Positions 41,517 to 62,880 of a stretch of DNA of 64,000 bases are shown here, piece by piece; position 1 is the first letter of the stretch, and each line of letters opens with the position of its first letter. The notes beneath the pieces are model-generated. The model did not search any database. It worked only from the letters and a program-made list of their open reading frames with translations, and had not been told where the DNA came from. The stretch is from Hygrocybe punicea. Taxonomy: Eukaryota > Basidiomycota > Agaricomycetes > Agaricales > Hygrophoraceae. The stretch covers positions 186,001 to 250,000 of the forward strand of contig OY744464.1 of NCBI GenBank assembly GCA_963556145.1. Reading direction: 5' to 3'. The position numbers were made by a program, and so were the translations under genes.

Positions 41517-41758
41517 CATATATCATGTATCTACGTTTCCCATCTCCTAGTACATAGCATTCCTCCACTCCACTCCACTCCTATCAGTTACAGCCTTCGC
41601 TTGTAGTACATAGTTACTACAGCACAGGATCACTCCCAGTAGTATAAAAGATGTACCCTTATACTACAAACTATATAGAAAAATACAGGTTATCACTCCC
41701 CTTCAGTTCTATTTCTTAGTCCTCGCTTCGTATCGTCTCATCAGTCTTCGAGCCCTTT
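41517..41758. other. possible LTR-like or promoter-like sequence
   Basis: Follows the Zn-cluster gene fragment. It contains TCCACTCCACTCCACTCC and a TATAAAAG box near 41642. The window ends before the corresponding part of the 64-kb copy, so a shared repeat cannot be tested. Confidence 0.35.
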
Positions 41759-41904
41759 CAGCATATCTTTTCCATGATACATGGGTCAGCCGAGATGGAC
41801 AATTCCCACTCCAAGTGGGCTGGCTTATCTCGGCCGACCAATATCTTTCTCCAGGGCAGATGGCTTGGCCGAGGGTTCCATGTTCAGAGAAGCATGGGTT
41901 GGCC

Positions 41905-42425
41905 GAAGCAGAGGGATATATCGGCTGGCCATGGAACATGGATTGGCTGACTGCGCTGGGTATCTTGGCTGGCCATGAAAGGTGGATTGGCCGACCTGGC
42001 TGGGTATTTTGGCTGGCCATGGAACATGGATTGGCCGACTGGACTACGTATCTTGGCTGGCCATGGAACATGGATTGGCTGACCTGGCTGGGTATTTTGG
42101 CTGGCCATGGAACATGAATTGGCCCACCTGGCTGGGTATCTTGGCTGGCCATGGAACATGGATTGGCCGATGGGTCTGGGTATTTCAGCTGGCCATGGAG
42201 CATGGATTGGCCGACTTCCCTGTGTATGTTGGCTGGCCATGGAACATGGATTGGCCGACCGGACTATGTATCTTGGCTGGCCATGAAAGGTGGATTGGCC
42301 GACCTGGCTGGGTATTTTGGCTGGCCATGGAACATGGATTGGCCGACCTGGCTGGGTATTTCGGCTGGCCATGGAACGTGGATTGGCCGATGGGTCTGGG
42401 TATTTTGGCTGGCCATGGAACAGTG
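41905..42425 (+). repeat. 45-bp minisatellite, left end of the KDZ element
   Basis: About eleven copies of a unit of the form TTGGCTGGCCATGGAACATG followed by GATTGGCCGACCTGGCTGGG and TATTT. The 45-bp period keeps several frames open. The products (MDWPTWLGILAGHGT-type repeats) are regarded as artefacts. Confidence 0.95.
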
Positions 42426-42430
42426 TTGCC

Positions 42431-42794
42431 ACAAATGCAACAGGTGGGTTGTATCTGTTCATTCAGCCTGCTCTGAACATACCCACCTTACATCTTTGGA
42501 CTCTTACCCACCCCTTGCCATGTGCCACAGATTTGGTACTTGCTCCTCTATCCTTGTGTTCTGGAATTTATCAATATTCACAATTCATCATATTCTCCTA
42601 ATCACGTCCTGCACCGACTTGCAATCCCCTGAGTCATCTACTTGTAATCCACATTGCTATTTGTTGCCATCAATCACGTGATTTGTCATCACCTCATGTT
42701 CACCACGAGGCATTCTTCCATTGTTCTGGACAACGACGTTCTGCCTTTGTTCCAGACAACGACATTTGCCTTCATTCTCCTCAGTTTTTGCCTA
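42431..42794. other. non-coding left subterminal region of the KDZ element
   Basis: Starts CAGTGTTGCCACAAATGCAAC, which resembles a hAT terminus, but no matching end was found. GACAACGAC words occur at 42730-42770. No gene supported. Confidence 0.4.
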
Positions 42795-45165
42795 AATGAA
42801 GTGGATCACCCCAGAATTTACTAAGATCCTCGAGGACGGTTATCCTGATTTTAGGAGATCCACTGGTGAAGATTGTATTCGTGTCCTGAAAGGGATCAGG
42901 AAACTTTAAAAAAAATCAGCACAACAAACCAACACACAATGGCCCCCAAATATGCAACAGGTCTGTATATTCTAATACTACCCTTCAGATAAGCCTAACA
43001 GCATTATACCATGAATACAGAAAATTCAAACTTGGTACCACAATCATCGGTCAAAATTGGAGAGCGACACTGAGGATGCTCCGAAATATACAAAGAAGTG
43101 GAATGCAAGGTTGGTTACAAGAGAAAAGATGACCAAGGAAATTGACGCTAGGACGGTGGAGCTGTCTGGAGAAACTGGAGGAAAGCCCGGCTACATCAAG
43201 CACTATGGGAAAGCGTGGAGTGATATTTACGGTTCCTTGACCGAAGAGAAAAAACAAGAATTTGAAGCTCTTGCCAACGCCTGGAACCAGCAAGGTCCAC
43301 CCTTGGAAGTCAAACGACGGTACTAATAATCTTCTTTCGTCTGCATGATGCTAATCTTCTACCTTATCCAGCCGAGCAGCAAAAGATTTTGGTAAGATGG
43401 CGATGAAGTTTATGAAGGACATAGATGAGCAGATGGGAGTAAAAATATTCATGTTGGTGGGATATGAAGACGAAGATGGGACTGTAACCAAAGGAAAGTG
43501 GGTCGATTCCTGCTTTGTGTCAATCACGTACTTATCTTCCCTTCCTGTGAGGTTCGAGACACCGGCCCCGGTACACAAGAAGTTCATCGGCGTCTTCAAA
43601 AATAACGGGGATGACATTTGGACCAAATGGGATGAACATTTGGGGTCCCTTTTTAATCATGACGGTACGATTAGCCATTGTTCCATCTTTCCCATGTAAT
43701 GTATTCCAGATGAATCCGATGGAGTGAAGACCGACAGTGAAGACGATGATGGTGGTCCAACTACCAGATATGACAAAAGCCTGCCGTTCAAGCTTGAGAT
43801 CGATGAGGATGGTTTTCCTATGGTACCGAATGTGTCAACTATGTCATTGGTCGATGTAAGAAACATGTTTAGATCACTGATGACCATGTCATATCGTACG
43901 TACCTCGACGTTGGCCAAGCTTACTGTACTCATATTCATTTGAAGGTCAGATGTGCAACAACAGCGTCGTCACTGTTCCATGGGGAAAAATTGGACAAAA
44001 TCGAAACCAATACATCGAGGACATCTACTTTCCCTCTCACATAGAACTACGGGAACCGTGGAAAATGAAACTCGATGAACTTCGGACCGTCCACCAATTT
44101 TGGTTGCAACGGCAGAAACTCGGTGAAAAACCATTCTGATTTAAAACCGTCCTGAAGACCGACCAGCGAGCACCAAATGCATTCGTGCAAAAAAAGAAGA
44201 AGTTCCATGCTGCTGCTGCTTTGGCCAGGACCGATCGTTCGGCGCCATCAAACTCCAGTGGGGAAACGACATCTATTCCTGCCGGAGCTGCACAATCGAG
44301 TGCTATGGGAGCTGCACAATTGAATGCTATCGGACCTCGCAGATCCAAATTGAATGTTCCAGCATTAAAGACAGTCCACCCCAAGAAGAAAACAGAAAAT
44401 GCCGCCAATTCCAGCAAGGGAAAACAGAAAGCAGTCAGTAGCGAAGAGGGCGATGATAGTTGGAGTGACGAGAGTGCAAGTAGTGGTAGCTTTGATGGAC
44501 GTGGTGGCGACAGCGAGATGGATGACGATACATTGATGTTGAAGCTTCTGTGGATGAAAAAGAAGATGGAGAGACAAGCAAAGCAAAAGGAGCAAGCAGA
44601 ACAGGTAGCAGCACAGAACCGAGAGATGGCAAGACAGTTACAAGAAGTACAAGAGCGGGAGATGCGAGAGGCCCAGGAGAGGGAGGCACGAGAGGCGCGG
44701 GAGAGGGCTGCAGGGGAGGCACGCGAGGCACGAGACGCACAGGACAGGGAGGCACGAGAGGCGCGGGAGAGGGCGGAACGGGAGGCACGAGAGGCACAGG
44801 AGAGGGACGCACGAAAGGGCTGGGAGGAGGCCAGGAAGAAAGAGGCACGAGACGCCCAGGAGAGGGTGGCATGAGAGGCGCGGGAGAGGGCTGAAGGGGA
44901 GGCACGCGAGGCATGAGAGGCACAGGACAGGGAGGCACGAGAGGCGCGGGAGAGGGCGGAATGGGAGGCATGAGAGGCACAGGAGAGGGACGCACGAAAG
45001 GGCCAGGAGGAGTCCAGGAAGAAAGAGGCACGAGACGCCCAGGAGAGGGAGGCATGAGAGGCGCGGGAGAGGGAGACAAACGAGGCACGGGAGAGTGATG
45101 TTGCACAACAAAGACGCCCAGGGAAGTTGGACAGCTCAAGAAATGCTGGTAAAAATGCGAGGTAA
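42795..45165 (+). pseudogene. HMG-like, coiled-coil protein of the KDZ element, decayed
   Basis: Exons read in order: MKWITPEFTKILEDGY; TWYHNHRSKLE and PKYTKKWNARLVTREKM; GKPGYIKHYGKAWSDIYGSLTEEKKQEFEALANAWN, an HMG-box-like helical block; RAAKDFGKMAMKFMKDID; KKFIGVFKNNGDDIWTKWDEH; RYDKSLPFKLEIDEDGFPMVP; then VTVPWGKIGQNRNQYIED. A basic and Ser-rich linker leads to a long coiled coil of REAREARERAE repeats. Stops interrupt it: one near 42907, TGA at 44137 (expected Trp) and TGA at 44872, 44914, 44971 and 45055, after which the frame runs to TAA at 45163. Similar proteins accompany KDZ transposons in mushrooms. A DNA-bending or scaffold role is a guess. Confidence 0.65.
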
Positions 45166-45580
45166 AGCTATCCCGTTTGTGGGGATGCAGCTCACAATTT
45201 GCATTACCACAAGCAGTCAACCCTTGCGACGTTCTACACGGCGGAAATAGGCTTTGTTGAATGTGCCTAAAAAGGTGATATGTGGAATAAATCATAAATA
45301 TATAATACTTGTGTCAAGACGGTCCAACGTCACATGTCACCAGTGTTATGTCATGTTTGGATGACCCAACGTGACATAACATTTTCCTCTACCCATGCCT
45401 CTCAATGGTTCGGTGTTTATTACAAGGAATACATTTAACAGCAGAGGAGGCAGATGATGCATTGCGATGTCAGGAATATACATGAGTAGGAAGCAGTATG
45501 AATGATATGATCCTCCCGGCCACTTACGACGGCGTTTCAGGTCTGTGGAACGTAGTGGTGAATCTGTGTGAATGATCATA

Positions 45581-48500
45581 TCAGTGTATATACAAGTTGT
45601 TGAGGCAATTTATTGTATCTGAGTCTTCCCTCTGAGGACGTTTCACAGGGGGTGTCGGGGGTTGGGGTGATCCATCGAAATCATTATACACTGCATCACT
45701 GCCAGATGAGATGTCCATTTGATCGTCATCCTCTCCCTCGTCACTGTCCACACTCTGGGCATTTAACTTCCCCACCATCTCATTTCGATCCTCCTCCTCT
45801 TCGTCCTCCTCCTCTGCCCCATCCCCATCCGTCTCCTCCTCCTCTTCCTGCAGCTCCCCCTCCTCCTCCCCCTCCTCCTCCTCCCCCTCCTCCTCCTCCT
45901 CCCCCTCCTCGTCCTCCTCCCCCTCCTCCTGCACCTCCCCCGCCTGCACCCCCTTGCCCTGCACCGCGCCCTCCTCCCCCCCCTTCTTTTCCTGCTGCTT
46001 CCCCTCGTCACGGTCTACATCTTCCTCATTTGACATACCCAGGGGCATGATTAGACCGTCCTCATTCCACGAAGCTGCGTCATTTGAATTTCCCACCTGC
46101 TCAGGTGGATCCTCCTCATTTGGGCCAGCGACGTCCATTTCTTCTCCCGCATCTTCCCCAGCCACGTCGGCTGAATTTCCCACCATTACAGGTGGATCCT
46201 CTTCCCTCTCAGTGTCCACAGCCATGTCGTTTGCACATCCAACCGTTGCAGGTGGATCCTGGTTTTCCTCTGTGGCTACCTCTTCGCCAGCTGCATCCAC
46301 TAAATCTCCCACCTTCCTAGATGGATCATCCGCCTCTTCCTCACCATCGGTGCCCTCCCCTTTGTCGCACTCATTGTCTTTCGCCTTTTCCCGTGTATCT
46401 GTGTCATCCTGTACCTCGCCTTCACCGGTAGTTGTGTTGACGAGCAGAATTGGATGAGGTGGAAAATCTAAGCATTCAACAAGAATGGGACTGATGGGTT
46501 CCACTGGACGGGTCTGAATGTGTATTTTGGGGCCGGTCCAGAAGAATTCCGATGGTGGGATCTGAAGCAGCTCATTCAGCTTTGGCACCAAATCTGGCCA
46601 ATCGTTTTGAAAATGTCGGCGGACCGCTGACTCAACAGCTTTGGCTGTGCAATGTGCTGGTGCCTTCACAACCCCATCCTTGTCCCATTTATACCCAACA
46701 ATTGCAGCAGATAGTTCCAAAAGACTTCGTTGGAAAATGTAAGAGGGGCTGATCCAGTGGTCTTCCATGACGACAACAAAATGTTCCGCAAACCAGATTT
46801 GGAAACATCTATATCTGCATCGTGCAATATTCTGTTCCTCATGAATGTCAGCCGATATGGTATGGGTGTAGAACTTCCTGTTGATGATATCTGCAAGCTC
46901 AATCAGGTTTCCCACAATCACAAGGTCGAGGAAGCCGTCTTTGGTTTCGATCTTGGGCATATGAGACTTGGTAAAGACAGTAGCTGTGCAGTGAGCATTT
47001 TAATCTTCAGGAATTTGTAAACCTCGCCCAAAGTAGCTCACATGATGATTCGTGGTTCCCCGTGAAGTACTCCATCCACATGGTGAGAAGTCGGCGCAGA
47101 AATGTACGTGTCACATTATGCTCCGTGTTTGTGATGGTATGACTCATCACGAAAGTATGGATAATCCCATAACAGGTATCCCGTATAGTTGACGTCGCAT
47201 AGAGATGATGCCCATTCACAATGGAGTGCTCCACACCGAGGACATAATGTGGGGTGCATGGCCTCATGTAACTGTGTGTTTCAGCACACATCCGAGTTGT
47301 CACGAAATATATTCCCACTTACAGCACTGAACCCTTTGTGAGCAGTAATCCTTCTGCTTCCCACAAGCCTTTCCCACCATGTTTTCTCGGCTCCCACTCC
47401 TGAGGATAGGCCTTGTTAGTCGCAAGATTGCCCGCCTTGCGATCCCATTCGGCATCCCTTCGAGGCCTCATGAGGACCCAGTACTTTGCGCCAGTCCTGA
47501 CAATAACCACCGTGCCAAAGCCATCATCATCTACGTGTGTCCAAGAAATGGCTTGAGCTGTCGCTGCCGTTCCCCAAGCCAAATCGTCATTTAAAGGCTG
47601 CTCGCGGACAAACCCCGGTTGGCCGCAGGTTTCGTGCCAAGCAACCTCAGATGATGAAAAGGACCTTTTCAGGAATAGACAGGTAAATCTCGTGTTCGAT
47701 CTTCGAAACAAGGTTGCTCACCGAAATTTTGGAGGTGGGTCCAACGTCATATGACCCATGGGAAGGTCAAGGAAATTGAAAACCCTTTCGTTGTCAGGGT
47801 CAAGCGCAAGCTGATATAATGTCTCCAATGTGCCAGGTTTGTTCATATTCTCGATATTAGGCACCAATCGCAATTCAGCAACTAACAAAGGCACTTTAGT
47901 CGCTATGCCCAGACATCGCTCCGGAAACGGACCTTGCACTGAACGAATGGACGACAAAGACCCCAATGTCTCCAAACCTTCTCTATCAAACTCCACTGTT
48001 TCTACAGGGGCATTGAGCACGAGGATGTGACGATGATGAAAGATTCCTTGAATTGTTGCAGCATCCATCGAGTTGAAGATGTTCCATTCCACCACGAACA
48101 CACATGATGCATGAGGATCATACATTTGTTCTCTTGCACTGGGCAGCCGATGTGGAGGAACCCCATCAATGTAACTGGATCGGATCATTTCATATGTTTC
48201 CCGCAACAATGCATGTTCCACTTTTGCCTGTATCGTGCTTACCAGTTAACAATCAAACAGTACAAAAATCAGACATCAACGTACAACGACGGATGGTGAA
48301 TAGTGCACATGTTCAATGGGTTCGTGTACAGCGTCACCATCATACATCATGAGATGAACACCCTCTGATGCTCGCTTTATGAATCATCAGTGGGGTGGCA
48401 CGTTATCGAACAACAAAAGACACACAATGGGTGCTGGACGGCTGAGCAAATCAGGTTCCCCATAATCCTATCAAAATATTCATTCATGACAAATGACACG

Positions 48501-49011
48501 TTCTTGAATCACTTACATCTCCGGTAAGGTTGATGATCACGTTCACTTTCTCTGGCGCTTTCTTATAGTCATCCTCGTCATCATCGTCATCTTCATCCTC
48601 AAGATCATCACGTTTCTTGGACTTGGGATAACTTCTTGTCGACCAGCGAGTGGATCTTTTCTTCCTCCGATAGGACCTCCCCAGCACAATTACGACTTTC
48701 TCTTCCTTCTGGACTTTCTCTGCCTTCTGCTTCTCCTTGCCTTTCGAAGAGTCCCCAACCTTGTCCAACATTTTGGCCTGGCTTCGGGTCAACATGGAGC
48801 TCTGTCCACCTGAAGCAAGCTCCTTCGATGGTCCACCCCTCTTCTTCCTTGTTAATTTCAATTGAAGCGGTTCATCATCGCTGGACAGAGGGTTGCCTGA
48901 TGCAGGCTTGTCATTCTTTGCCTTGGGGTCTGTTGGAACATTTTGTTTCGTTGCCACCGTAAGCTGACTAGCAGAGTTGGTCAGGTCATCCACTTCCTTA
49001 TCTTGCAACAT
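45581..49011 (-). CDS. JmjC-like 2-oxoglutarate oxygenase with acidic tail
   Basis: Multi-exon minus-strand gene. The N-terminal exon (48517-49011) is basic and disordered (LTRKKRGGPSKEL, GRSYRRKKRSTRWSTRSY, then an acidic run). The next exons read DYGEPDLLSRPAPIVCLLL, HYSPSVVV and KVEHALLRETYEMI, then the oxygenase core: FHHRHILVLN, FDREGLETLGSL, VFNFLDLPMG, SWTHVDDDGFGTVVIV (HxD iron ligands), GAKYWVLMRP, and MRPCTPHYVLGVEHSIVNGHHLYATST with the distal His. The C-terminus (45581-46960) carries a helical domain and then a long Glu/Asp tract. Two adjacent TGA codons (48384-48389) fall in the assumed frame unless a very short intron removes them. Likely a nuclear oxygenase; substrate unknown. 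Confidence 0.65.
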
Positions 49012-50640
49012 CTGTTGTCAGTCCCAGCAATAAATGTAGAGACAGGCGGCGTACTGTCAAAACAAAACCAACTAAAGTCCTGTTCCGTTCCCTGGACGCT
49101 GTCCTCCAACAAATCATATTCTTGGAGGAATACATTGAGCTCCTGCATCGCCGAAGATCCTAAACATATTCTTGTAATGGCCCTCCAAAGCGCCCTCTCC
49201 GTTTTGGCAAGGAATGAAGGCCTTTCATTGCCCAAGGCAAACGTGATCTTTTCCTTATGTCAACTACGTCCAAGTTGGCACAAATAATGGACTCACTGCC
49301 ATGAGAGATGGCCGTGCATGAGATTCATGATTGAAACGTCGTGGGAGAAGAGTAATTAGGGGTGACAGTGTGAGGCTTAGGTGGAATAGATTTCTCATCC
49401 GATCATACATTAAACCTCCGAAAGACTTGGTGGTGAGGGCATTGACAAATGAGTCTTGCAACGGTAGATCAACACTCTTGGCCATCCTGAAACCATGTGA
49501 ATTATTTATTTGCGGCAGGCGTAATGTGATTGTAACGCAATCCCAACCTCTGTAGCTTCTCCACCCATGTTGTGAAGTCGCAGTCTACATATGAGTTGCC
49601 CTGTTTTTGTACAAAATCTGACACACGTTTCATATAGGACATACGTCACATACCTGGCCAAACCACGTGAATGAGAATGCAAGAAGCTCTAGATTGAGGA
49701 GGATCTGGTTGACGTCGGAGGATTCAAGGTTGACAGATGCATGGTAAAGGATCCGGATGTTCATTTCTACTTCTTTTTGGGCTGGTGTCAAGTGTGCTGG
49801 GAGAGCGACTGCAAAGATAGGGATGGTGTCCATACTGGACACCACTTTCTGCAGCACTGCCACGGCTGAAACACCCACCACTTCTTGATCTTGTTGCGTG
49901 ATTAATAGACTTTTGCATGTCATACGAAGCTTCGTGATCGGCTTACTCCAGTCTCTCAGAAATTTGTAGAGCTTCAAGACGGTGTGCAAACGTCAACTTA
50001 AAACGTCTGCCCAAATGTGAATGGTGAACTCACCTTGGTCAACTTCTCGCTCATCTCTGGTTTCGCTGATCTCCGAATTACTTTGAAACTTGGATGACGA
50101 GGCAACCCAACAGCGTCCATGAGCTTATCGAGCAGGGTATAGCGAAGGATTGAGTGAGCCGCTACCAGGAGGTCATTCCGGTACACAGTAGTCCACCTTG
50201 CCACATCACGCATAGCAGAGCCATCAGCAGAGAGGTATTCTTGGATGGTTTGGGCTTTACGTGAGATTTCACCTGTGGGATTCACATAATCCAATTGCTT
50301 TGCCAGGGCCTAGCAGACAAGTTGACCGTCAATGTTACAAGGTGGGAGATTTGACGCACCATCACAGCCAAGGTGGACGGTGTGTTTCCTAGAGCAGACT
50401 GATTGCCAATTAAGGTTACGATAGCCTTCTCAAGTGAATCTTCAGCAAGAGGCGTGCCATTGACCCACGGGAAGTCCTGGAACACATTCATGCTTCGGAA
50501 ATTACTGCCAGACATTACAGACGCATGTAGAGAAGCGATTGACGGCGCCGAGGTGCTTGCTGATGACGACATTGCCAAAATGTTCAATTCGAGTGTATCT
50601 GAGAGCAATTCAAGAGAGGCTGAGGCTAGATGATAAGGGT
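48981..50640 (-). CDS. hypothetical multi-exon protein of the KDZ element
   Basis: Minus-strand exons with strong protein character: MSSSASTSAPSIASLHASV, NVFQDFPWVNGTPLAEDSLEKAIVTLIG, LDYVNPTGEISRKAQTIQEYL, WTTVYRNDLLVAAHSILRY, LYKFLRDWSKPITKLRMTCK, QKVVSSMDTIPIFAVALPAH, VNLESSDVNQILLNLELLAF, NSYVDCDFTTWVEKLQR, FVNALTTKSFGGLMYDRM and ERALWRAITRICLGSSAMQEL. It looks all-helical. I know of no named domain. It ends close to the start of the JmjC-like gene on the same strand, so the two may be one transcript or even one protein. Confidence 0.5.
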
Positions 50641-50965
50641 GCAGAAGGTAAAAAAAAAAAAGACGTGTCACGGTTTACTGTGATCACGTGTGACCACATC
50701 ACGTGAATTGCCACATTTAAGTACACATTTCGAATTGACTGAGTTGTCAATGTGACAGAGTTATCAATGTAAAGCCATGGAAGTTCTCCGAACACTGTCT
50801 AACACTGTCTAGCTATCTGTTAGTTGAAACTCATATGCCTTCGTCGTCCGTGAATGAGGATAACGAGATTTAGTTCCACAGAGGTTTCTGACTACAGTCG
50901 TACAAAGCATGCAACGGTAGCTGTCGTACTTTTACGTTAGGATGATATCTCCCTTGGCACAATAG

Positions 50966-52524
50966 CTAATTCCATCTCCATTCCTGTGATGCCCAAAACT
51001 CAGCATTCATCTCCCTTACAAACACATTGTGTCGGCTCCAGGTGGGCTTGTCAATGTTGAGACGGTCATGTACCATGTTTCGCATATAATGCGCCATGCA
51101 TATTCTTTCACCGCCCTCCCATCTGCCTACACTGTGACTGAGAACCTTGCCACAAATTTCGATGACGGTTCCTGGCGAATAAGAGAACGTAGCATCCAAC
51201 TCAGGGATGGCTAGTTCCACGTTCATATGTGTCCCACAACTCGCCAGCAAATCATACCATTCTGGACACCCTCCAGCATCTCTGTGTCGAGTTGTAATCC
51301 TGTTAACGATAACGGCGATTCCAGTGTAAACAGATGTCCACTCCTTAGCATTTTCGTGTGTTTCCACGTTCTTGATCGTTTCGCCGTCCCGGATTTTTGA
51401 CAGCCAGAAGGCCAGCTGTGTACAATGACTGATGGGTTAACGCAGTAATTGCGTTGAAGATCAGCTCGCTGGGTTCGATTGCAGCCATCCACATGGTGGC
51501 TTCAGTTGTTCGAAGAGTTGTCGACGTGATCAACCTATCGGTAAGTCGCTGAAAAAACAGGCGGTCAGCTCATGTAAAACAGACGACTAACTAAAGGTGT
51601 TACCTCTCTACCCTGAGCAAACCATGCTGCGGTGAAATCCACTGATCCTGGGTGAAATCGTGGGTTTGGAGGTGGAAAGAAAATGTTTGGATCTTTCCTC
51701 CATTGCGGATCTTTCCCTTTCTCAAGTTTTTTGAGGGACTCTGAATAGGATTCTTCCAGAATTTCGGTTATCATTTCAGCACTGACATTCAATTCCTCCT
51801 GTGTCGCAGTGGGTACTGTCAAAAACCATATTTCCGGGGGGCAAGTGACTCACAATACGTCTTGGAGTTACAACATCAGGTAGATACCTGACCAAAATTG
51901 AACCACACGTGTCGATTACTGTAGCTGGTTCATTCACATGTCCGATGTGAATCTCCTGAAAAAACCTGAGTAGGTTTTCATTGTCAGCATCCGAAGTGTC
52001 CTTGATATTCTTCACTCGATTTGCCAGTCTATTCGCATCCAAGGGCACAATTACTTTGAGGCAAGATGTCAGTCTAAATATGCCGACTTTCATGGCAGCA
52101 ACGTACTAGGGTTCAAAATCGCGGCTGCCACAGTGAGGAGAACCCTCTCCAGTTTGGATTCTGAGACCATGTCCGACTTGGAGAATGTTTCGCAATCTGG
52201 GGCCGAATCTCCCAAGACCTTGCTAACTGGAAGCTGATCCCTCAGCATCATCAAATGTGATCTACAAAACATGTAAGATATGACATTGAAGCAGCATGGA
52301 TCTGACCTCAGCCGTTTGCATTCCTCTACAGGAGACTTCGGAGGGCGCATGCCCGACTTCCTATAATACGATGTAGTGTTTGAGAGGATTCTTCTCAGCC
52401 TCGTCCACATATGTTTCTTTAGATTTGGAGCGAGACCACAATCCTTTGTTTTCATGTTGACGGAAAGCGAGGCTTCCATTGCCTTGGATTGTGCATTCTT
52501 TGAGGGGATTCTGTCGGCGTACAT
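50966..52524 (-). CDS. TET/JBP-family 2-oxoglutarate dioxygenase
   Basis: Multi-exon minus-strand gene. The N-terminal part is basic (MYADRIPSKNAQ, HMWTRLRRILSNTTSYY). Then come LTSCLKVIVPLDANRL, GSILVRYLPDVVTPRR, AEMITEILEESYSESLKKL and FHPGSVDFTAAWFAQGRE. The core reads EWTSVYTGIAVIVNRITTRH-RDAGG, with H-x-D iron ligands, then EWYDLLASCGTHMNVELAIP, FSYSPGTVIEICGKVLSHSV and GRWEGGERICMAHYMR, which holds the distal His and the Arg that binds 2-oxoglutarate. These residues and the NR-T-H-D layout are hallmarks of fungal TET/JBP enzymes, which oxidise 5-methylcytosine. No stop is seen in the core. The join near 52090 is not fully resolved. Carriage by a KDZ element fits reports of such links in mushrooms. 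Confidence 0.8.
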
Positions 52525-52835
52525 AATGGTTGAGAAGTGAGATTGGTTGAGAATTGGGAAGGTCAGTTTTAGTACACATGGTGGCCTCGAGGCGGTATAA
52601 TTTAATAAGGTGTTATTATGGTTAGAACTTTTAGCATTTAATAATTTGCTGCATACAGCAATTTCACCATGTCACAAGAACGACCAACTATGATATAACA
52701 CACAATATAGCACAAAAAATGGCAATGCCGAGCAGATTCAGTGTATATACATATACAGACCATGCACATTTATAAGCTGATTGATACCTGTGCCGTTTGG
52801 TGAATGATATAATAGTCAAAAGTACAGCAAGACTT
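52525..52835. other. non-coding spacer in the KDZ element
   Basis: AT-rich; no gene supported. Probably the promoter of the TET/JBP gene and the 3' side of the next minus-strand candidate. Confidence 0.45.
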
Positions 52836-53330
52836 ACTTTTCTTGACGTCAACAAGGCCACCAGGCCCACTACAGGGAGGTTGCCTGGCAAGGAAATCAG
52901 GGGGATTCACCCGCCCTTTCATTCCAGGTTGACCGGCAGCGGCAAGCGCCCATTTCTGAGGACGGGCCACCACCGGTTTGGCACGCACTGATGCCACAAC
53001 TTGCGCTATGAAGGAGTGGTCTGAAATAAGTAAAATTGTCAGCAAGCCTATTCACCGTGACAAAACATGATGGACAGAGCAGCTGTAATGAAAGTGAATC
53101 ACTACTAAAAGCGCAATATTAAAATGAGAAGACACACACCTTGGATGCAAATGGGTATACCGCCAGGCCTGTTGCAAGGAGGTTGCCTGGCAAGCAAATC
53201 GGTGAGATTCACCCGCCTTTTCATTCCAGGTTGACTGGCAGCAGCAAGCACCCATGTCCCAGGACCGGCCACCATCGGTTTGGCACGTACTGATTCCACA
53301 ATTAATGCATGTGGAAACCTTGGCAGGAAG
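52836..53330 (-). CDS. hypothetical gene with a duplicated exon
   Basis: Two minus-strand blocks about 300 bp apart encode near-copies of one 50-residue segment. Block one (about 52840-53000) has VRAKPVVARP, LAAAGQPGMKGRVN and LARQPPCSGPGG. Block two (about 53150-53310) has VRAKPMVAGP, LAAASQPGMKRRVN and LARQPPCNRPGG. The conserved Cys, Pro and Gly suggest a small structural motif. Flanking sequence looks intronic. The full gene structure and function are not known. Confidence 0.4.
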
Positions 53331-53913
53331 CTGTAGAAGATCAATCGCAGTGACAAACAATCAGTCACTTACGAATATTCTAAGTGAATGGCATTCAGCA
53401 GAGACATAACAAACCACTCACCATTCGGGTAGAAGAATGATATGTAACCTAAAGTGCGTGGCATCCCATAATGCGAAATTGTTGCCCGGTACAACAATCT
53501 CGCAGTGTGGGATGTACAATGATGAGGGGGAAAACAACGAAGGATGGGAAAAAGAATTTAATCAGCGCTTGTGATTGGTTGTATTTGTTCACGTGACAAA
53601 CGTGGTTGGTTTTCATCACGTGAAATGACTTGACTCACATGATGTGGCCAAGTTTGGATGGTGACAAGTCACGTCCGTGACTCGTTGTTGTGTGCATTCA
53701 TATACTGGCTAGGAAAGTCGTAAATGGCAGTGTTGCAAAGGCCCATAGTTACGGAAACGTCAGTACTGTATATTGTTACATTTGAAATTCATGCTCTGGG
53801 CAGGAAGCTTGTGAATGGCACTTTGTTGCACAAATGTTTAATTACAGCGTCGCTGCCGAATAATGAACACCTTTGCCTTGATTTCAACTGTATATGTGGG
53901 CGGTTGGTGAAAA
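53331..53913. other. spacer in the KDZ element
   Basis: Contains several CACGTGA/TCACGTG words (about 53590-53680), which also occur near 50685 and 54655 and may be shared promoter elements. No gene supported. Confidence 0.4.
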
Positions 53914-54645
53914 TTAACGTTCACAGGTTTCACCGACAATCAAGGGATGTAGCACACCTGCAACAAACCCAGTGGTGAGGTGAATGAAATATCCCATACG
54001 CATATGAACATTTTCATCCACACCAAACATGTGTGGCCAGCCTCCTTTCAGGAACGGCGTTCGTGCATGGCCTGCGTCTTCCGATCGCATCATGCCGAGC
54101 CATCGGACAGAATATTGTTCTTGTTCGGTGACGGCCGCATGAAAAGACACGAATAGATTTCAGGCACATCCTAAACAATCAAAAGTGGGGTCAGTGTAAT
54201 GTTGTAAACACACTGGGGGAAGCATTCAATGTCGTGAAAAGCAGCAGCTTTACCAGGCTGCATGTCAACAAGAACCGCCATAAATGCAGCGTTCCACATT
54301 TCCCTGGTACAGCGCCCTACCAAGGATACAACGGCGCTGTCATTTGCTGCCGTACTAGTGATTATTGCCATGCAGCAAGATGGTAGTGTGTTGGAATCAA
54401 GAGAACTTACCTTGGCCAACGTTGATGGTGCGACTCAGGATGTGATGGAATAAGGTGATTTCTGACCAAATAAAAACAAATGCCCATTTTAGGGTATCAT
54501 ATCTACTAGAAAACATAGAATAATGGCTACGTGGGGAATGAGCAATCTCATAGAGGATGTGCAATTTGTGCAGTGCTGCTATGACCTCTTCTTTGCTATC
54601 CAATTTCCCTACTGCGTTAAATGTGTCCAACAGCGGCGTGACCAC
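53914..54645 (-). CDS. hypothetical gene of the KDZ element
   Basis: Three minus-strand segments have coding character: LLDTFNAVGKLDSKEEVIAALHKLHILYEIAH, then VSLVGRCTREMWNAAFMAVLVDMQPGKAAAF, then VRWLGMMRSEDAGHARTPFLKGGWPHMFGVDENVHMRM. Intron borders are not settled. No family recognised. Confidence 0.4.
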
Positions 54646-55494
54646 ATTACATGTGACCCGGCATCACATGATTGAACAGCTCTCTTTGTTCTCAACCATC
54701 ACGTGCATAACCTCACATCAATCGAATATGCCATCTCTCCTACTCCCCGTCCTTTTCACCGTCTCTGGTGGAAACACCTACCACAAATCTCTGGAAGGGA
54801 CCACATCTGTTGAGTTTGAATGCAAAGGATCATGGTAAGTCATCATGTTCAGCATCCTAATCATCACTCACTGTCGTATACAAGTGTTTGTTGTATTTTG
54901 ACAGAGGACAGCTCTGTGACCATGCAACTATTGGTGGAATGTGATGTTGTCAGTTGCCAGGTGATTGTCAGTCTTCAACAGCCCACCCTTGATATTCAAG
55001 TAATTTTGTAGGCCACCAAACCAAATGAAGAGCAGATATGCGGCTTGGTATTGTATGTGCTTGTTTCTCGGCATGTGGATAAAGCCACATGTGTGTTTTT
55101 AGGCAGAGAGAACAATGGTACGCCACCATTTCAATAAGCTTACATGTGACTGCAATTGATACTCAGAGATTGTTTCAAAACATCAAATTGGCATTTATTT
55201 CGACAACGAGCATGCATCCTGGACATCAGATATGTATGCGGATTTGCTCAGTTTGCTCACCAGTACACTGGGCGAAAGTAGCATCAAGTATTTACAGTGA
55301 GTATCACACATTCATCATACCACAACTAATCTCTACTTCAACAGAAATGACATCGAAACCAATGGCCGATTTTTGCAGTTGAATGAAAGGCCAGATGCGG
55401 TCATGTACATCACATTGCCATGGCCAGGCCTGTCACTCACCTCAGGTGTTCTAGGGTTGAAAACACGTGTACTGTTGCAAAATACTCAGAGCGG
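54646..55494. other. region upstream of the Ulp1-like gene
   Basis: May hold early exons. A short open piece starts MPSLLLPVLFTV (54728) and ends at a good donor GTAAGT near 54836. Another piece lies after an acceptor near 54903. Their frames do not join cleanly to the protease domain, so they are left unassigned. Confidence 0.35.
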
Positions 55495-56551
55495 GGTGCT
55501 GTTCCGTGGATGTCATATCAACGTTTGGAAAAGGATTGGCTAGATGACGAACTGATTAATTTTGGTACCCAGTAGGTACATTTCAACCCTCCAGTGCAGT
55601 AGCTTATTCCCCGTTTCAGTTACGCTCTGCAGCAAGCAGCAATCCATCAGCCGGAGTTGCCGGCAAACATACACATATTCATTACTTTTTTCATGGAGAA
55701 ATTGAGGTGCACGTTGCTTGGTTGTTCATATAACTTCATTTCCTCTGAATCTGGTCATAGGAAGAATGGGGTGAAGACTTTGAAGAGGTGGATGAAGGCA
55801 ATCGACATATTTTCGCTCCCATACTTGGTCTTTCCTGTGCCCACTGGGTGAGTGTAGTCAGTTTTCGTGAAGGCAACATCTCACTTCACCATCAGTGACC
55901 ACTGGTATTTGATTATCGTGGCAAATCCTGCTGCATGTTTGTTAGAAAATCCTCCTGATGGACGACACACGTAGTTATCCATTTCAGCTTTGCATTGAAC
56001 TTACTCATCGTCGGTTAGCGTAACATTTATTCTCGATTCACTGCCCCCAGCACACCATCAAAAAGATATATCCCTGGTTCATGCGTGGCCAGCCTGCATT
56101 GCGAAGAACACCAGACAGGTGAAAAAGCTGGCACCTATCAAGAGAATCACCCCCAAGGTGAACCACGTCTAACCTCTGTGTTGCGAATGAATTGAACGTT
56201 TGTTTTCAGGTACCTGTCCAGCCGAATTTTGATGATTGCGGCATCTACATGCTGCACTTCCTCCGAATCTTCTTAGAAAACCCAATAGAAATGATGAACA
56301 TCATGCTGGGTGACGAGATTGCTATCAGAGCTGCCAAAGATCCATGGCAAGACGGGCGGATACCCACGCTCCGTCAGGAACTCCAGGGGGCGTTGCGCAG
56401 GCAAGCTGTTCGTAATTGCATTCAGGGTGATGCGCTGGAAAGGGTTGTATTGGAAGGAAAGGAGGGTTCATCCGGTGATGTTAAATTGGTCTCCGGTTGG
56501 TTTGAGGCCCCAACTATGGTATCAGATTCTGACAGTTCATCGGATTTGTAA
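55495..56551 (+). CDS. Ulp1-type SUMO protease (C48 family)
   Basis: Exons read MSYQRLEKDWLDDELINFGT, donor GTAGGT, then YALQQAA and IHIFITFFMEKL, GVKTLKRWMKAIDIFSLPYLVFPVPTG, donor GTGAGT, then DHWYLIIVANPAACLL (catalytic His), FILDSLPPAHHQKDI (catalytic Asp), and after another intron VPVQPNFDDCGIYMLHFLRIF (Gln and catalytic Cys). A 90-residue tail ends in SDSDSSSDL. The His-Asp-Gln-Cys set defines SUMO/ubiquitin-like proteases. KDZ elements of fungi often carry such genes, perhaps to act on SUMOylated chromatin proteins. The N-terminus is not resolved. The catalytic exons have no disabling change. Confidence 0.8.
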
Positions 56552-56694
56552 CATTTTCCTGTCCTCAAATGTATTTGTATATCAAGCGACATAATAATCT
56601 TTATTATTATCCATGTGTTTTGCCTCGTGTATTGGTCTTTATAAGGCGTGTCATTTTCTCACTTTTCCCACACTCATCTAACTATTGTTCATCC

Positions 56695-59600
56695 ATGCCG
56701 AAATCAAAAGTCATTTCCCGGTCAGGAAAAAAAAAGGAATTTGCCAGAGAGGTTGAATTTATGGTGGTGGAAAAGAAACGAGGTGGAAAGACAGTCAAGG
56801 CTCGTCCAGTTATTCGTCCGCCAAGTCCTGTAAAACAATCACATAGGAGTGAAGATCTTCCCTTGCCCTCAACGTCGTTTGTGGAAGAGGAGGACCCTCA
56901 GACAAGGAGACATCGCAATAAGCGTGGAAAGGTTGACACAACTATTATCTGTACGACTTGATTTTGATTGCATGTCAATTAGACACAGAATGATGAAATG
57001 GAAGCCTGGAAAGCGATTCACAAGCAATACCTCTCCGAACTCTTATCATCTGAGGCCCCCCCTTCCGATGTTACATGCCAGTCATGTCTGATGGCCGATA
57101 TCACCATTCATTGCCCTGATTGCTATGGTTGCCCTTCGTTCTGCCAGCGTTGTTGTTTGCAGACACACATTCATAATCCATTCCACAGAATTGAGATATG
57201 GAATGGCAGATGTTTCCTGAAACATGACCTTAATACGATTGGCCTGGTCATGCGTCTTGGCCATGGTGGAGGCGATTGTCCGTCATACAGAAAAGATGGC
57301 CCCCAGCCATCTGTCGAAGATACATATCTGCATGATGTTCTTATGTCAGGTGGTGGTGAGGAGGACGATTTGGATCCGGCTTTGGCAGTTCACGCCGAGG
57401 AAGATATCATAACTGTCACTCATACGAATGGAATTTACCGACGTCGAATCCGATGGTGCTCCTGCCCAGATGCCCCCACTCGAGATATTCAACTACTTCG
57501 AATGCATTTGTATCCTGCAACAGCAAAACGGCCGTCATCAGCATTCACTTTCCAGCTCCTGGATCATTTCTACATTGATTCGATGGAGTGCAAAACGTCT
57601 GCAAACAACTTTTATAACAAGTTAAGGAGACTGTCTTCCAATGCATTTCCAGATACATTGCCGGTTTGTGATATACTAGTTGTTTTGTTACATTGTGCAT
57701 ACAGAACGGAGTACTGAGTTATGGTGTTCAGGATCGTTATCGTGAGCTAATGAGGGTGTCAAGACAGTGGCGATACTTGCACCTCAAGAAACGATTCGGC
57801 TTTGGGCATGACACTGAGAGGGAGCCTGGTAATGGCGATCTGGCATTGTTTTGCCCTGCATGTCCCCAGCCAGGGATAAATCTTCCGCAGAACTGGATGG
57901 ATAGACTGCATCAGTGGGTCATTCTGATCAGCTTTCATGTAGTTCCACACCAAATAGGGAAACAGGTGGCTTTACAGGCCCAGCATCGTCGTCGATGGCA
58001 ATTTCAAAGCTGAGCAGATTAACATGCGGAAGCCTGAGGACGACGTTGGGCTTATCGATGGACAAGGCTATATGGTTGAGGATGCACCTTATCGTGCTCA
58101 TCTGGCAGCTTCCCTGGAGTCCAAAGAGGTATTTATCGAATTGTGAATTTCGTGAATGCTAAATCAATGATCATGTATCAGAGGTCACAGTGCTCCAATC
58201 ACAAGGCCATCAACCAAGCAAACGCCAATCGTCATAACTTATACGCTACTGGCATCGGTGCATGTGCATGTGCCAAGCATGGTTGCTTTGTACCCCACAG
58301 TGTCGTCGACTTCCAGAAGGGTGAACGGTTAGTCATGTATTTTGAGCTATGAATCGTGACAAATTTATTAAAGAGTCTGCACCAGACACATGAACGTTGA
58401 TTATTCGATATGCAACGCTCTCAATAGGCTGTGCCACAGTGGTATCACCCAAGCACTGGTGGAATATGATATTGCCTGCAGTTGGCTGATCAATTTTGCT
58501 AAAAGGGTTTCCGATTCCGACCACCTCACTCTCCCTGAGGCGCTTGAGATCATTGGGGCTGTGGGCAAGTTTCATCTTGGTGCACATGTTGCCAAGTATT
58601 TTGCCCTATTCAGTCTCAACTTCGTTCGTGGTGCTGGTTAGCAGGATGGTGAAATTTTGGAGACACTGTGGGCTATCATCAACAAGATTTCCAGTTTTAT
58701 TCGTTTCATGTCAAAATCCCAACGACGTGAGATCTTGGATGACCTTATGAGGGATTTGAATTGGAAGAAGTTGGTAGGAATGGGCAGGTGATTCATAGGC
58801 ATGTCATCAATACATATCATCACCATAGCTGTCACACAGTTCGGTCTTTGTTGAAACGATATGATAAAGCAGTAGATGGAATGCAGGAAATGAAGGCAGC
58901 CTTTGAGGAGCTTTCCGAAACTGTGGATGAGCAAGTGCTGGTGGAGTGGAAGGAAGAAGAAAGAAGGGCAATGGATTTCCGTGGTGACTACTTGAGGGTA
59001 TTTGACGTCAGAATGGAGAAAGGTTTGTCTTGTAAAGTGTTGGTGTTTTGGACATGGTAATGATGTTTCACCAGCACCATCGCAGGCTGAGATCAGGTTG
59101 AGACTGATGACAGGGAATCCCAAAGATGTAATGGCTGGTCGGGTGACCATCTTAAATGAAGGAATAAACATAGAACAAGCACAGTAGGATGTATCCTCAT
59201 TCTCATCGATCGTCTCTTTGACATTTGTTTACCCTACAGGAATACTCTGAAAACAACGGCTCGTGCTGTTCAAAAAACGGGCAGTTTCACAGACAAGGCA
59301 AATCTGGAGGATCGGCGAAATAGACTGCAGTCTCGGATCGACTGGTTCCACAGAAAAATACAAGGAATACTTGGTGAAGATGTGGATGAGTGTAATCTGG
59401 TCAATTATGATCCCACTGCTGATGACTGGATTGTGGATGTGGATGAGGAGGGTGGGGTAGACGAAGAAGATGATGACCATGTTGCAGAATGGCCAGAAAA
59501 TTTCCGACTCACAATGCCATCGACCTTAGGAGTGGAGGAATGTGCTCAGCTGGGTTTGGAAAATTTGGTGGCTCAGGAGGTGGAACTCAGGGTGGGCCAA

Positions 59601-60258
59601 GCAAACGATTGTTTGGAAAACTTGAGGATGACACTGGGTGAGAAAATGGTAATCTTTCGAACCTCTGGTCATGGAGCAAACAGCCAGAAGAAGAAGACTC
59701 GAGCATGGGACGACATACATGCCATCCAGCAAAAAGTTGGTAAATATGCCACCAGCTACAGGCAGGCTCGTCGAGCATTGGTCAATCTAGGGGGGAATGC
59801 AGACATTTTGGATTGTTTCAAAGTGCTGAGGCAGGAGGATATCAAGATGAGTGGTGATATGCTTGAGGAGAATAGAGTGGGCCAGAGGAGTCACAAGCTG
59901 CCCTGGATCTGGCGGAGGAAAGAAAGGAATAATACTGGTGACAACGATTGGATGCAAGAAGGTGAATGGTTCTGCTACAGCAATTCATGGAAGATCTTAC
60001 TGCTATACAGTGTATCGTGTAAACTGGCTCCGTGGCAAGGCCAGATATGATCGGTGGTCTGAAGAATTGCAAAGCGTCAAGTCAGAAATGGGTAACGTGA
60101 TTCGTTGGCTGCAACAGCAGAAGGTGCAATGGGAAGCACGTCGTGACAAAGTTGGTCTGGGACTGAGGGGGCACATCTGTTATGCAGAAAAACAAATGGT
60201 AATGTGGAGGAATATGATAGCACAAGCAGAAACTGCCTTTTCCAACAAGATGGAGTAA
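56695..60258 (+). pseudogene. KDZ transposase with CxC2-like cysteine cluster
   Basis: Starts MPKSKVISRSGKKKEF. A basic N-terminus is followed by the CxC2-like cluster (CQSCLMADITIHCPDCYGCP, CQRCCLQTH, HRIEIWNG, GLVMRLGHGGGDCP), then FTFQLLDHFYIDSMECKTSA. The transposase core has LALFCPACPQPGINLP, IVVDGNFKAEQINM, DDVGLIDGQGYMV, NHKAINQANANRHN, TGIGACACAKHGCF, VDFQKGER, MNVDYSICNAL, LVEYDIACSW, AVGKFHLGAHV, DGEILETLWA and LDDLMRDLNWKK. The C-terminal helical part runs to TGA at 60256-60258. One clear lesion: TAG at 58639-58641 where CAG (GAG-QQDGEI) is expected. Otherwise the motifs look intact, so loss of activity may be recent, or this copy moves in trans. Confidence 0.85.
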
Positions 60259-60404
60259 TACATATTATTAGAGAAGATATAGTTGAACAGAAGAAAGTAA
60301 TATATTTTTAACCAACTGGACCATAACCATCTGCCAAGAATGACCAGCAAGCCAATATATGGTATTTGCCAACCCATGTCCCATGGCTGACGGTATACTA
60401 ACCA

Positions 60405-60680
60405 GGATTGGCCAATCCATGGCCAACCAAAATACCCAGACCTGTCGGCCAATCCATGTTCCATGGCCAGCTGAAATACCCAGACCCATCGGCCAATCCA
60501 TGTTCCATGGCCAACCGAAATACCCAGTGTGGTCGGCCAATCCACCTTTCATGGCCAGCTGACATACCCAGACCTGTTGGCCAATCCATGTTCCATGGCC
60601 AGCTGAAATACCCAGACACGTCGGCCAATCCATCTCCCATGGCCAGCCAAAATATCCAGACCGGTTGGCCAATATATCCC
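60405..60680 (-). repeat. 45-bp minisatellite, right end of the KDZ element (inverted)
   Basis: About six to seven copies of the same 45-bp unit as at 41905-42425 but in reverse orientation (GGCCAATCCATGTTCCATGG). It ends against the inverted terminal block at 60680-60834. Confidence 0.95.
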
Positions 60681-60834
60681 CCTGCTTCGGCCAACTCCTG
60701 TCCCTCAGAACATAGACCCCTCGGCCAAGCCATCTCCCCTGGAGAAAGATATTGGTCGGCCAAGATTGGCTGGCCCACTCGGAGTGGGAATTGTCCCTCT
60801 TGGCTGAGCCATGTCTTGTGGAAAAGATATGCTG

Positions 60835-61200
60835 TAAGGTGTGAGTCTTCGTACTCCACTCCCTTCACTTCCCCTCTGATCCGGAACCCTTGATTCGGGT
60901 TGGATTGACTAGACTACATAGACACTAAACTCCTCTGATCACTTCTTAGCTGATCACCCATTTTCGTAGATTCCCATTCGGGTCTACAACCGAACTCGCC
61001 GTCACAACTGGAGCCCACCGCAAGGAGTTTATTTCTTTTGTCTTTTCATACCCTCCCCACGGTCGGCTTTGACTTTCATGACGTTTCCCTCTTCTACCTG
61101 ACTCTAGTTAGTTAGTTCCGCTTACGACTTCGACCTCGACCTCGAACCTCCTCGACCCGACCCGCTTTCCGACCCGCATCCCGATTTAGACATTCCCGAT
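60835..61200. other. leader region of a Gypsy-type element
   Basis: Non-coding. It precedes the Gag start and may contain the end of an LTR and a primer site, but neither could be defined. Confidence 0.4.
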
Positions 61201-62880
61201 ATGACGTACGGATTCATGCCTCTCCGAGGTGATCCCTCAGCCCCGACATTCGACGGAAACGAACTCGACCTCCCCCGCTTCTTCGACGAAATCGACATAC
61301 TCAGTTCCGATTGTGGACTCATGGACGCTTTGAAGATTCGCTACACGCTACGGTACCTCAACAATGACGATTACGAACTCTGGTCGACACTTCCCGCCGC
61401 TTCTGCTAAAGACTTCATCGCTTTCCGACGTGCCGTCTTCAACTTTTATCCCGGTGCTACGGATTCCATCCGGTATACGATCTCGGATCTCGATCAACTT
61501 ACGCGACGACAATCGGCTTACGGTATAGAGAACAAAGTGGACTTAGGACAATATTTCCGGGATTTCATACGCATTTCCGGTGTCTTGTTTGACAACGGCC
61601 GTCTATCGGATAAGCAACGGAACACATACTTCGCCAATGGATTCGACTCAGACCTTCGTCTACATATTGAAGAATGCCTCCATTACCTTCATCCCGACCA
61701 TTACCACGACGATCCGTACCCGCTTGACGTTTTCCACGATGCCGCCTTATTCCTGCTTTCTGGTTGTCGCTCTGTTCCGAAATCCCCTTCCCTTGCCATT
61801 ACTATCTCTAGTCCCGATTCCAGTCCCAGTCCCCCACCCATCATAGCTTTGTCATCTCTGGTCCCGATTCCGACCTCAATCCTGCCCACTGTCGTTCGTT
61901 CCGTCCCCCACATTCATTCCGGTCCTTCGTATACTCCGTCCCCGTCATCGTGTTCCCCATCCCCGTCCATTCCGGTGCCCGTCGAGACCGTTATTTGTTT
62001 ACAGGTTTTGTCATCCAGTCCCGTGTCGCCCCCATCTGATCCCACTCCCGATTTATCGATGCCGGTCAACGATTTATCCATTCCATTTCCTATTTCGTCC
62101 CCATTATCTCCGGTTTCGTCCCCTCCGGTTTCCATCCACGAACTCGTACCGGACCCACTCCCATTGTCCTTGGATTCTCCAGAAATAGACATTCCGTCCC
62201 CGATATTGCCGCCATATTGTCCTCCGTCACCGTCTATCGAGATTCCGTCGACTTTGGTTGAGTATTCCATACCCGTTCCCAATCCGGACTCCATTCCACC
62301 CCTTGTATTTGATTTCGATTCCGGTTCCGATTCCGTTATGTCAACCCCTTCGCTCCTGGTTCCCCTCGTCGTTTCTGCTCCCATATCGTTGTCGGTTCTG
62401 TCTTCGCCCGCTTGGGGCACCCCGTCGTTTTTAGACCCATCACGCGGCACACCCCTTATATGGGATCATGTCGGTGTCGGCACTCTGGTTCTCAATTTTA
62501 TTTTATTCCTCGTTTCCATCTTCATTCTACTTTGTCATCGCATTTTGGACCTCCGCCCCCTCGACACCTCGCTCGAATATTTGCAAGAAGCTCTTCGTCT
62601 CCTCTCGTCGTTCCGCCTCCGACCTTCTTTCAGAAACTCTTGTGGGGATGTAGACCCGTTTCCGTCTCCTATTTTTGCGTTTTCGTCTTCCGTTCCGCTT
62701 TCCGTTCCCGTTCCCATTTCTCGTTTATTTATATTTTTATTTCCGTTTCTAGTTCTCTTTGTTTCCCGTCCTTTCCGGACCTGTTTCATTTCCATTGTAT
62801 TCCGGTGCCATCCTCCTCCTCGACCCCCAGATTCCGGTTATCTTATCTCGTCGTTCTGTTTCCCTCTTTTCCGTTTATAG
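61201..62880 (+). CDS. Ty3/Gypsy-type Gag-like protein with Ser/Pro-rich tail
   Basis: 559 codons. The first 190 residues look like a retrotransposon Gag capsid: MPLRGDPSAPTFDGNELDLP, FFDEIDILSSDCGLMDALKI, RYLNNDDYELWSTLPA, FRRAVFNFYPGA, ISDLDQLTRRQ, YFRDFIRISGVL, FANGFDSDLRLHIEECL and a DDPYPLDVFHDAALFLLSGC block. The remainder is Ser/Pro/Val low-complexity sequence, then a Phe/Leu-rich run, and looks like an open but perhaps non-coding continuation. No zinc knuckle, protease, RT or integrase follows within the window, so the element is partial or non-autonomous. Confidence 0.65.
   Translation: MTYGFMPLRGDPSAPTFDGNELDLPRFFDEIDILSSDCGLMDALKIRYTLRYLNNDDYELWSTLPAASAKDFIAFRRAVFNFYPGATDSIRYTISDLDQLTRRQSAYGIENKVDLGQYFRDFIRISGVLFDNGRLSDKQRNTYFANGFDSDLRLHIEECLHYLHPDHYHDDPYPLDVFHDAALFLLSGCRSVPKSPSLAITISSPDSSPSPPPIIALSSLVPIPTSILPTVVRSVPHIHSGPSYTPSPSSCSPSPSIPVPVETVICLQVLSSSPVSPPSDPTPDLSMPVNDLSIPFPISSPLSPVSSPPVSIHELVPDPLPLSLDSPEIDIPSPILPPYCPPSPSIEIPSTLVEYSIPVPNPDSIPPLVFDFDSGSDSVMSTPSLLVPLVVSAPISLSVLSSPAWGTPSFLDPSRGTPLIWDHVGVGTLVLNFILFLVSIFILLCHRILDLRPLDTSLEYLQEALRLLSSFRLRPSFRNSCGDVDPFPSPIFAFSSSVPLSVPVPISRLFIFLFPFLVLFVSRPFRTCFISIVFRCHPPPRPPDSGYLISSFCFPLFRL

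What the first reader, a model, noticed from the sequence alone, without database searches (positions are those of the whole stretch)
41759..60834. A 19-kb KDZ transposon carrying TET/JBP, JmjC-like, Ulp1-like and HMG-like genes
One pair of inverted ends encloses a KDZ transposase, a 5-methylcytosine dioxygenase candidate with H-x-D and R intact, a JmjC-like oxygenase with H-x-D...H, a SUMO protease with its full catalytic set and an HMG-like/coiled-coil protein. Links between KDZ elements and TET/JBP genes are known in basidiomycetes. This copy is notable because the whole set, its ends and the gene order are visible at once. An element that brings its own demethylation and deSUMOylation tools could keep itself out of silenced chromatin.
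Basis: partly seen in the sequence, partly recalled or inferred. Interest (0 to 1): 0.88.

Follow-up and report, generated by a model that had tools for sequence, protein, structure and literature searches.

The report
Jumping gene with de-silencing cargo
A 19-kb fungal jumping gene, found in many near-identical copies, carries a fixed set of companion genes, among them a DNA-demethylation-type enzyme and a SUMO-cutting protease, that selection has kept, although its copies still bear the scars of being methylated.

Summary
The element is real: a KDZ DNA transposon at 41750-60843 (19,094 bp, 9 bp wider at each end than reported), flanked by a 7-bp target duplication and inserted in a retrotransposon LTR whose uninterrupted partner shows the empty site. 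Fifteen full-length copies (18.5-22.0 kb) were paired in this genome. All 15 hold HMG-like, JmjC-like, Ulp1-like and KDZ exon hits in one order; 14 of 15 also a TET/JBP hit. Four genes, one read in two parts, show dN/dS 0.12-0.21 against a diverged relative. A more distant family (24-56% amino-acid identity) keeps HMG, JmjC-like, TET and KDZ but shows no Ulp1.

Corrections: the window's own TET/JBP is frameshifted and its transposase has a stop; the JmjC and HMG labels have no database support; copies decay mainly by CpG transitions (4.4% vs 0.2%) along the whole element, so they do get methylated.

KDZ transposons carrying TET/JBP, some with 7-bp duplications, are published (Kojima 2025). Added here: the complete delimited gene set with JmjC-like and Ulp2-like members, selection on it, and its stepwise history. 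Anti-silencing is the best mechanism but is inferred. New variant of a known kind.

The parts
41743..41749 (.). 7-bp target site duplication, left copy (AGTCTTC)
   Evidence: empty site
41750..41925 (+). left terminal inverted repeat with the nine outer bases
   Evidence: 40 of 40 scored matches (316 candidates) at 97-100% identity
41923..42422 (+). left subterminal array of 44-bp units (11.4 copies), with the CpG word TTGGCCGA
   Evidence: length differs between copies mostly in steps of 44 bp
42796..45162 (+). HMG-like / coiled-coil gene; the window copy has stops in the model
   Evidence: no Pfam match; exon hit in 15 of 15 paired copies
45581..49148 (-). JmjC-like gene (HxD, GxKxW, P-x3-HxV); open in the window copy
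   Evidence: 97 exon matches in the genome
49502..50491 (-). G3: conserved stretch, probably the front part of the JmjC-like gene
50966..52524 (-). TET/JBP dioxygenase gene; 2-nt deletion in the last exon, near 51,398 by reading the frames
54820..56551 (+). Ulp1-family (C48) SUMO peptidase gene, nearest SENP7/Ulp2; open in the window copy
56695..60258 (+). KDZ transposase gene; stop at 58639-58641 and GC donor after 58783 in this copy
60416..60673 (-). right subterminal array of 44-bp units (5.9 copies)
60668..60843 (-). right terminal inverted repeat with the nine outer bases
60844..60850 (.). 7-bp target site duplication, right copy (AGTCTTC)

Best explanation
It is a recently mobile KDZ (Kyakuja-like) cut-and-paste DNA transposon whose own inherited gene set, not loose host cargo, is transposase + TET/JBP + HMG-like + JmjC-like + Ulp2-like SUMO protease. 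Shown: one mobile unit with exact borders; the same gene set in the paired copies; purifying selection on transposase, TET, JmjC-like (with G3) and Ulp1; methylation-type decay of copies. Inferred: the transposase acts through the inverted ends and the CpG-bearing 44-bp subterminal repeats; TET/JBP oxidises 5mC that the host puts on the copies; the HMG-like, JmjC-like and Ulp1-like proteins help to open SUMO-rich silent chromatin, acting in trans on the population of copies long enough for expression or transposition. Silencing wins in the end, so copies decay by CpG mutation while new ones are made.
For: Pfam and PDB matches; 15 paired copies with one gene order; 7-bp duplications and empty site; dN/dS 0.12-0.21 with shifted-frame controls 1.15-2.01; gene set kept in a family with 24-56% amino-acid identity; neighbour counts within 25 kb of KDZ hits far above 4-6% chance; CpG transitions about 22 times other C-to-T; methylase-family matches in the genome (5).
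Against: CpG decay is 3.9-7.0% in every region, with no protected ends or promoters. The window's TET and transposase are broken, and none of the 8 copies read has all genes open by my models. The JmjC and HMG identities are unproven. A KDZ group at 42% identity or less has none of the four partners in 17 of 31 cases, so KDZ elements can live without them. No expression or methylation data were available.
Confidence: 0.6

Rival explanations
1. The accessory genes serve the transposition reaction or target choice rather than escape from silencing: TET readies the CpG in each subterminal repeat for transposase binding, HMG bends DNA, and the Ulp1-like and JmjC-like proteins modify the transposase or host partners.
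For: Each 44-bp unit carries a CpG word; the arrays are kept at both ends in all 8 copies and in the distant family; HMG and TET are the partners that reach the most distant KDZ groups.
Against: Ulp1 and JmjC-like are absent beside many KDZ hits, so they are not needed by the chemistry in general; no binding data.
Confidence: 0.25
2. The cargo genes are host genes captured by chance as passengers without use to the element.
For: Most copies have one or more of them broken.
Against: dN/dS 0.12-0.21; the set recurs in other KDZ tiers and in 15 of 15 paired copies apart from one TET.
Confidence: 0.04
3. The JmjC-like protein is not a JmjC or 2-oxoglutarate oxygenase at all; the motifs are coincidental.
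For: No Pfam or PDB profile match of use up to E 10; AlphaFold models without confidence.
Against: HxD and GxKxW are kept in the window, Q1, Q8 and two metagenome relatives (P0009, P0011), and P-x3-HxV in the window and Q8, the rows that reach that far. A pattern written after seeing the protein occurs in 0 of 20,000 shuffles of each of two sequences (not an independent test).
Confidence: 0.25

Closest known systems
Kyakuja TET+ transposons of Agaricomycetes (Kojima 2025, PMC12730594; parts 1-5 of 7 of the text read, and passages)
   Same: KDZ transposase, TET/JBP of the AG type (Gly331 and Asp337 equivalents kept), 7-bp target duplications, proposed escape from silencing.
   Different: Kyakuja-1/2_LB are described as CA..TG ended and without TIRs; this element has TIRs of about 175 bp and a GA left end. 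The paper's main text does not mention JmjC, Ulp1, SUMO, protease or HMG; its supplement was not available.
KDZ elements with TET/JBP and a divergent HMG protein (Iyer 2014 PNAS; recalled, not held)
   Same: KDZ-TET-HMG association.
   Different: From recall I cannot say whether JmjC-like or Ulp1 genes were listed; not checked.
Zisupton of fish, named for a zinc finger and SUMO protease (recalled; PMC9297572 passages, do not mention the protease)
   Same: KDZ superfamily, an Ulp1 domain.
   Different: 8-bp duplications (PMC12730594); here Ulp1 is a separate gene beside TET, and duplications are 7 bp.
KDZ1-3 of Cryptococcus (PMC12810828; passages)
   Same: Long TIRs (139-241 bp), KDZ transposase with a CxC domain, proven mobility.
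   Different: 9-11 kb, described with transposase domains only, 8-bp (4-8 bp) duplications, little or no methylation detected.

Membership tests
KDZ superfamily | KDZ transposase domain with CxC cluster | tested here: met
   PF18758 2.2e-46, PF18803 6.4e-25
KDZ superfamily | TIRs and 7-8 bp target duplication | tested here: met
Kyakuja | 7-bp target duplication | tested here: met
   exact in 6 of 8 copies, one CG-to-CA mismatch in 2 of 8 (the two read by eye from the printed flanks)
Kyakuja | CA..TG termini and no TIRs (as described for Kyakuja-1/2_LB) | tested here: not met
   right end ..TG, left end GA.., TIRs of about 175 bp; therefore called Kyakuja-like
Kyakuja | transposase groups with Kyakuja in a tree | not tested
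   no reference Kyakuja sequences at hand
Zisupton | 8-bp target duplication | tested here: not met
   7 bp (the window alone allows an 8th base)
TET/JBP dioxygenases | Tet_JBP domain with HxD, H and R | tested here: met
   (copy F); residues present in the window but out of frame with the start
Ulp1/SENP (C48) peptidases | C48 domain with H, D, Q, C | tested here: met
   PF02902 3e-23; SENP7 1.6e-13
JmjC oxygenases | HxD...K...H motif | tested here: met
   motif meaning recalled
JmjC oxygenases | profile match to JmjC or cupin families | tested here: not met
JmjC oxygenases | double-stranded beta-helix fold | tested here: inconclusive
   models with pLDDT 29.9 and 33.8
HMG box | HMG profile match | tested here: not met
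   no Pfam family up to E 1; fold job not run

The most novel reading that the evidence does not exclude
The family carries a layered anti-silencing kit maintained by selection: a DNA 5mC oxidase, a new family of JmjC-type oxygenase acting on chromatin or on a silencing protein, and a poly-SUMO protease that takes SUMO-dependent heterochromatin apart. It works in trans on all copies, so that single copies are methylated and mutate while the population keeps transposing.
Probability: 0.3. Interest if true: 0.8.

Novelty: new variant of a known kind. Interest (0 to 1): 0.55.

Why it matters
Transposon-borne TET/JBP genes are known in fungi but their use is unproven. A delimited family with many near-identical copies, a fixed gene set under purifying selection, presence or absence of Ulp1 between tiers, and a measurable methylation scar makes the anti-silencing idea testable. 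It also points to a selected JmjC-like protein family without a Pfam match (97 exon matches in this genome; eight metagenome relatives).

Tried and rejected
Chance pairing of ends: rejected (reversed pattern 0). Composite of nested elements: rejected. RIP as cause of the decay: not supported, since CpG transition rates are alike in ACG, CCG, GCG and TCG (3.8-5.1%) and on both strands (217 and 214). G3 as an independent gene: doubtful; the gene finder joins it to the JmjC-like gene in two relatives, and in the window a joined 1,324-aa stop-free model scores lower than two genes unless gene ends are penalised. JmjC fold: two AlphaFold jobs failed in confidence, so no fold search was run. A single-sequence search for JmjC-like relatives found 0; the profile search found 8. 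PHROGs gave one chance-level row (E 0.3). Host species not identified; a basidiomycete is inferred from gene content. The copy on C1 used for dN/dS (L055+L056, called Q1) gave no HMG hit in the 20 kb read; whether it is truncated is not settled.

Limits of counts: one search scored 40 of 316 and 40 of 312 candidates; one search lists 100 of 116 places and pairing used, so more pairs may exist. One search used 91 of 97 JMJ rows; one search used those, 93 of 99 HMG, 68 of 74 ULP and 107 rows (174 matches, not all listed), leaving out second pieces of one exon and short partial hits. dN/dS for ULP rests on 171 codons, some from very short matches. P0010 was dropped from the structure alignment because it aligned wrongly. 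Of the 14 other paired copies 7 were read in full; for the other 7 only hit positions were seen.
Full report
WHAT IS THERE. The window lies in an unnamed 92.2-Mb genome (42 contigs; C6:186001-250000). The exact end pattern occurs 116 times, the reversed control pattern 0 times. Left-type and right-type ends face each other at 18,467-22,011 bp in 15 places, the window included (tabulated).

BORDERS. Seven of the other 14 copies were read in full. The element is therefore 41750-60843. The flanks joined over one duplication match a 300-bp stretch at C6:251548-251847 without a break at 99%, and 39 further places at 94-98% (42 matches, 40 over the full length; 40 of 850 candidates scored). At least six pairs of those places lie on one strand 4.3-4.7 kb apart, as LTRs do, so the element sits in one LTR of a retrotransposon and the other LTR shows the empty site. 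That this is an LTR is an inference from the pairing and from the gag-like ORF beside it.

GENES. Spliced models and Pfam give, from left to right: an HMG-like/coiled-coil gene (+), a JmjC-like gene (-) with a conserved front part G3 (-), TET/JBP (-), an Ulp1-family peptidase (+) and the KDZ transposase (+). TET (copy F) matches CcTet (7vpn, 1e-22) with HxD, H, R and the equivalents of Gly331 and Asp337; the role of those residues is taken from PMC12730594 (text) and PMC11040006 (search listing only). The peptidase is nearest SENP7 and Ulp2. In the window copy TET carries a 2-nt deletion upstream of HxD and the transposase a stop codon and a GC donor. Among the 8 copies, by my models: transposase stop-free in 2 (B, D); TET last two exons open in 4 (C, D, E, F), of which C has lost the AG before the last exon and D lacks 1 nt further up; G3 in 6; JmjC-like in 2 (W, D); Ulp1 in 3 (W, C, F; E has lost a donor); HMG-like in 2 (E, F). 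None of the 8 has all of them open.

ONE UNIT. Of the 15 paired copies 15 hold HMG, JMJ, G3, ULP and KDZ exon hits and 14 a TET hit, all in the same order. The seven copies read in full align with the window element over their length and pairs of copies are 97.65-98.46% identical; they differ by array length and by nested insertions.

SELECTION AND HISTORY. Against a diverged relative on C1 (68-94% DNA identity in the well-matched exons), dN/dS is 0.20 for JMJ (707 codons), 0.18 for G3 (236), 0.12 for the TET core (246), 0.21 for ULP (171) and 0.18 for KDZ (808); shifted frames give 1.15-2.01. HMG was not tested. A family on C8 has inverted arrays on both sides and HMG (28%), JMJ (35-39%), G3 (24%), TET (30-39%) and KDZ (30-56% amino-acid identity) in the same order, HMG and TET turned round, and no Ulp1 hit up to E 0.01. 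Neighbours within 25 kb of KDZ exon hits: at 94% or more, 25 of 31 have all of TET, JMJ, HMG and ULP; at 80-87%, 10 of 26; at 43-46%, TET 18, JMJ 13, HMG 13 and ULP 2 of 19; at 42% or less, 17 of 31 have none, 12 have TET, 12 HMG, 2 JMJ and 3 ULP (chance 4-6% per gene). JMJ hits lie within 12 kb of a TET hit in 40 of 54 cases at 78% identity or more, 1 of 4 at 58-67%, 14 of 29 at 44-50% and 0 of 4 at 41-42% (chance 3%). So HMG and TET look like the oldest partners, JMJ follows, and Ulp1 is the youngest or the most easily lost.

METHYLATION SCAR. Of singletons among the 8 copies, CpG transitions hit 431 of 9,880 site-copies and other C-to-T 109 of 54,248, about 22-fold less, without 5' context or strand bias. 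The rate is 3.9-7.0% in each of 12 regions including the ends. This is the mark of 5-methylcytosine decay (established knowledge). It shows that copies are methylated and gives no sign of a protected zone. The genome has 5 exon matches to the DNA methylase family. It has 122 Tet_JBP exon matches, against 0 of 14 control genomes.

MECHANISM. Most likely the genes buy the family time against silencing: TET oxidises 5mC, and the HMG-like, JmjC-like and Ulp2-like proteins help with chromatin and SUMO. Each enzymatic step beyond domain identity is inferred. The main rival is a direct role in the transposition reaction, since the subterminal units carry a CpG word.

KNOWN OR NEW. KDZ-TET transposons are published: Kojima 2025 (PMC12730594) describes Kyakuja elements with AG-type TET and 7-bp duplications and proposes escape from silencing. 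Iyer 2014 (recalled; not held) reported KDZ, TET/JBP and a divergent HMG protein. Zisupton is named for a SUMO protease (recalled). In the library searched, no paper held all of the words KDZ, JmjC, transposon and fungi, and Kojima's main text has no mention of JmjC, Ulp1, SUMO, protease or HMG; supplements were not seen. Added here: the complete delimited set in 15 copies, the JmjC-like member, selection on the cargo, its stepwise history and the decay signature. The JmjC and HMG labels remain unproven.

Noticed in passing
window 1-6060: A tandem array of about 59 copies of a 102-bp unit, with 2.3 copies of a similar 102-bp unit just after it at 6087-6317 that look reverse-complemented.
   Followed up: no
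window 16001-20000: A GC-rich stretch (up to 63% GC) with strong GC skew (up to +0.43) and CpG observed/expected 1.47, unlike the rest of the window.
   Followed up: no
window 61108-62880: A 590-aa ORF, gag-like by eye (no Pfam match), in the retrotransposon whose LTR holds the KDZ element; the 300-bp joined site is repeated widely (850 first-look candidates).
   Followed up: partly
genome G000, KDZ hits at 42% identity or less: A KDZ group of which 17 of 31 hits have no TET, JMJ, HMG or ULP hit within 25 kb: a possible cargo-free control family. Its ends were not examined.
   Followed up: partly
G000:C2:114551-149914: Two ends of a variant type (TGAA) face each other 35 kb apart, with a KDZ hit between them at C2:144197: perhaps a larger or nested relative.
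   Followed up: no
G000:C34:2637241-2658163 (copy K): The only one of 15 paired copies without a TET/JBP hit.
   Followed up: no
copies A (C1), B (C1), C (C2), G (C8): Insertions of 1,767, 1,066, 1,157 and 2,504 bp inside the element, at window-equivalent 60296, 46447, 53945 and 48573.
   Followed up: no
P0013, JGI metagenome protein: 92% identical to the JmjC-like protein over 26% of the query: a near relative of this family occurs in a metagenome sample.
   Followed up: no
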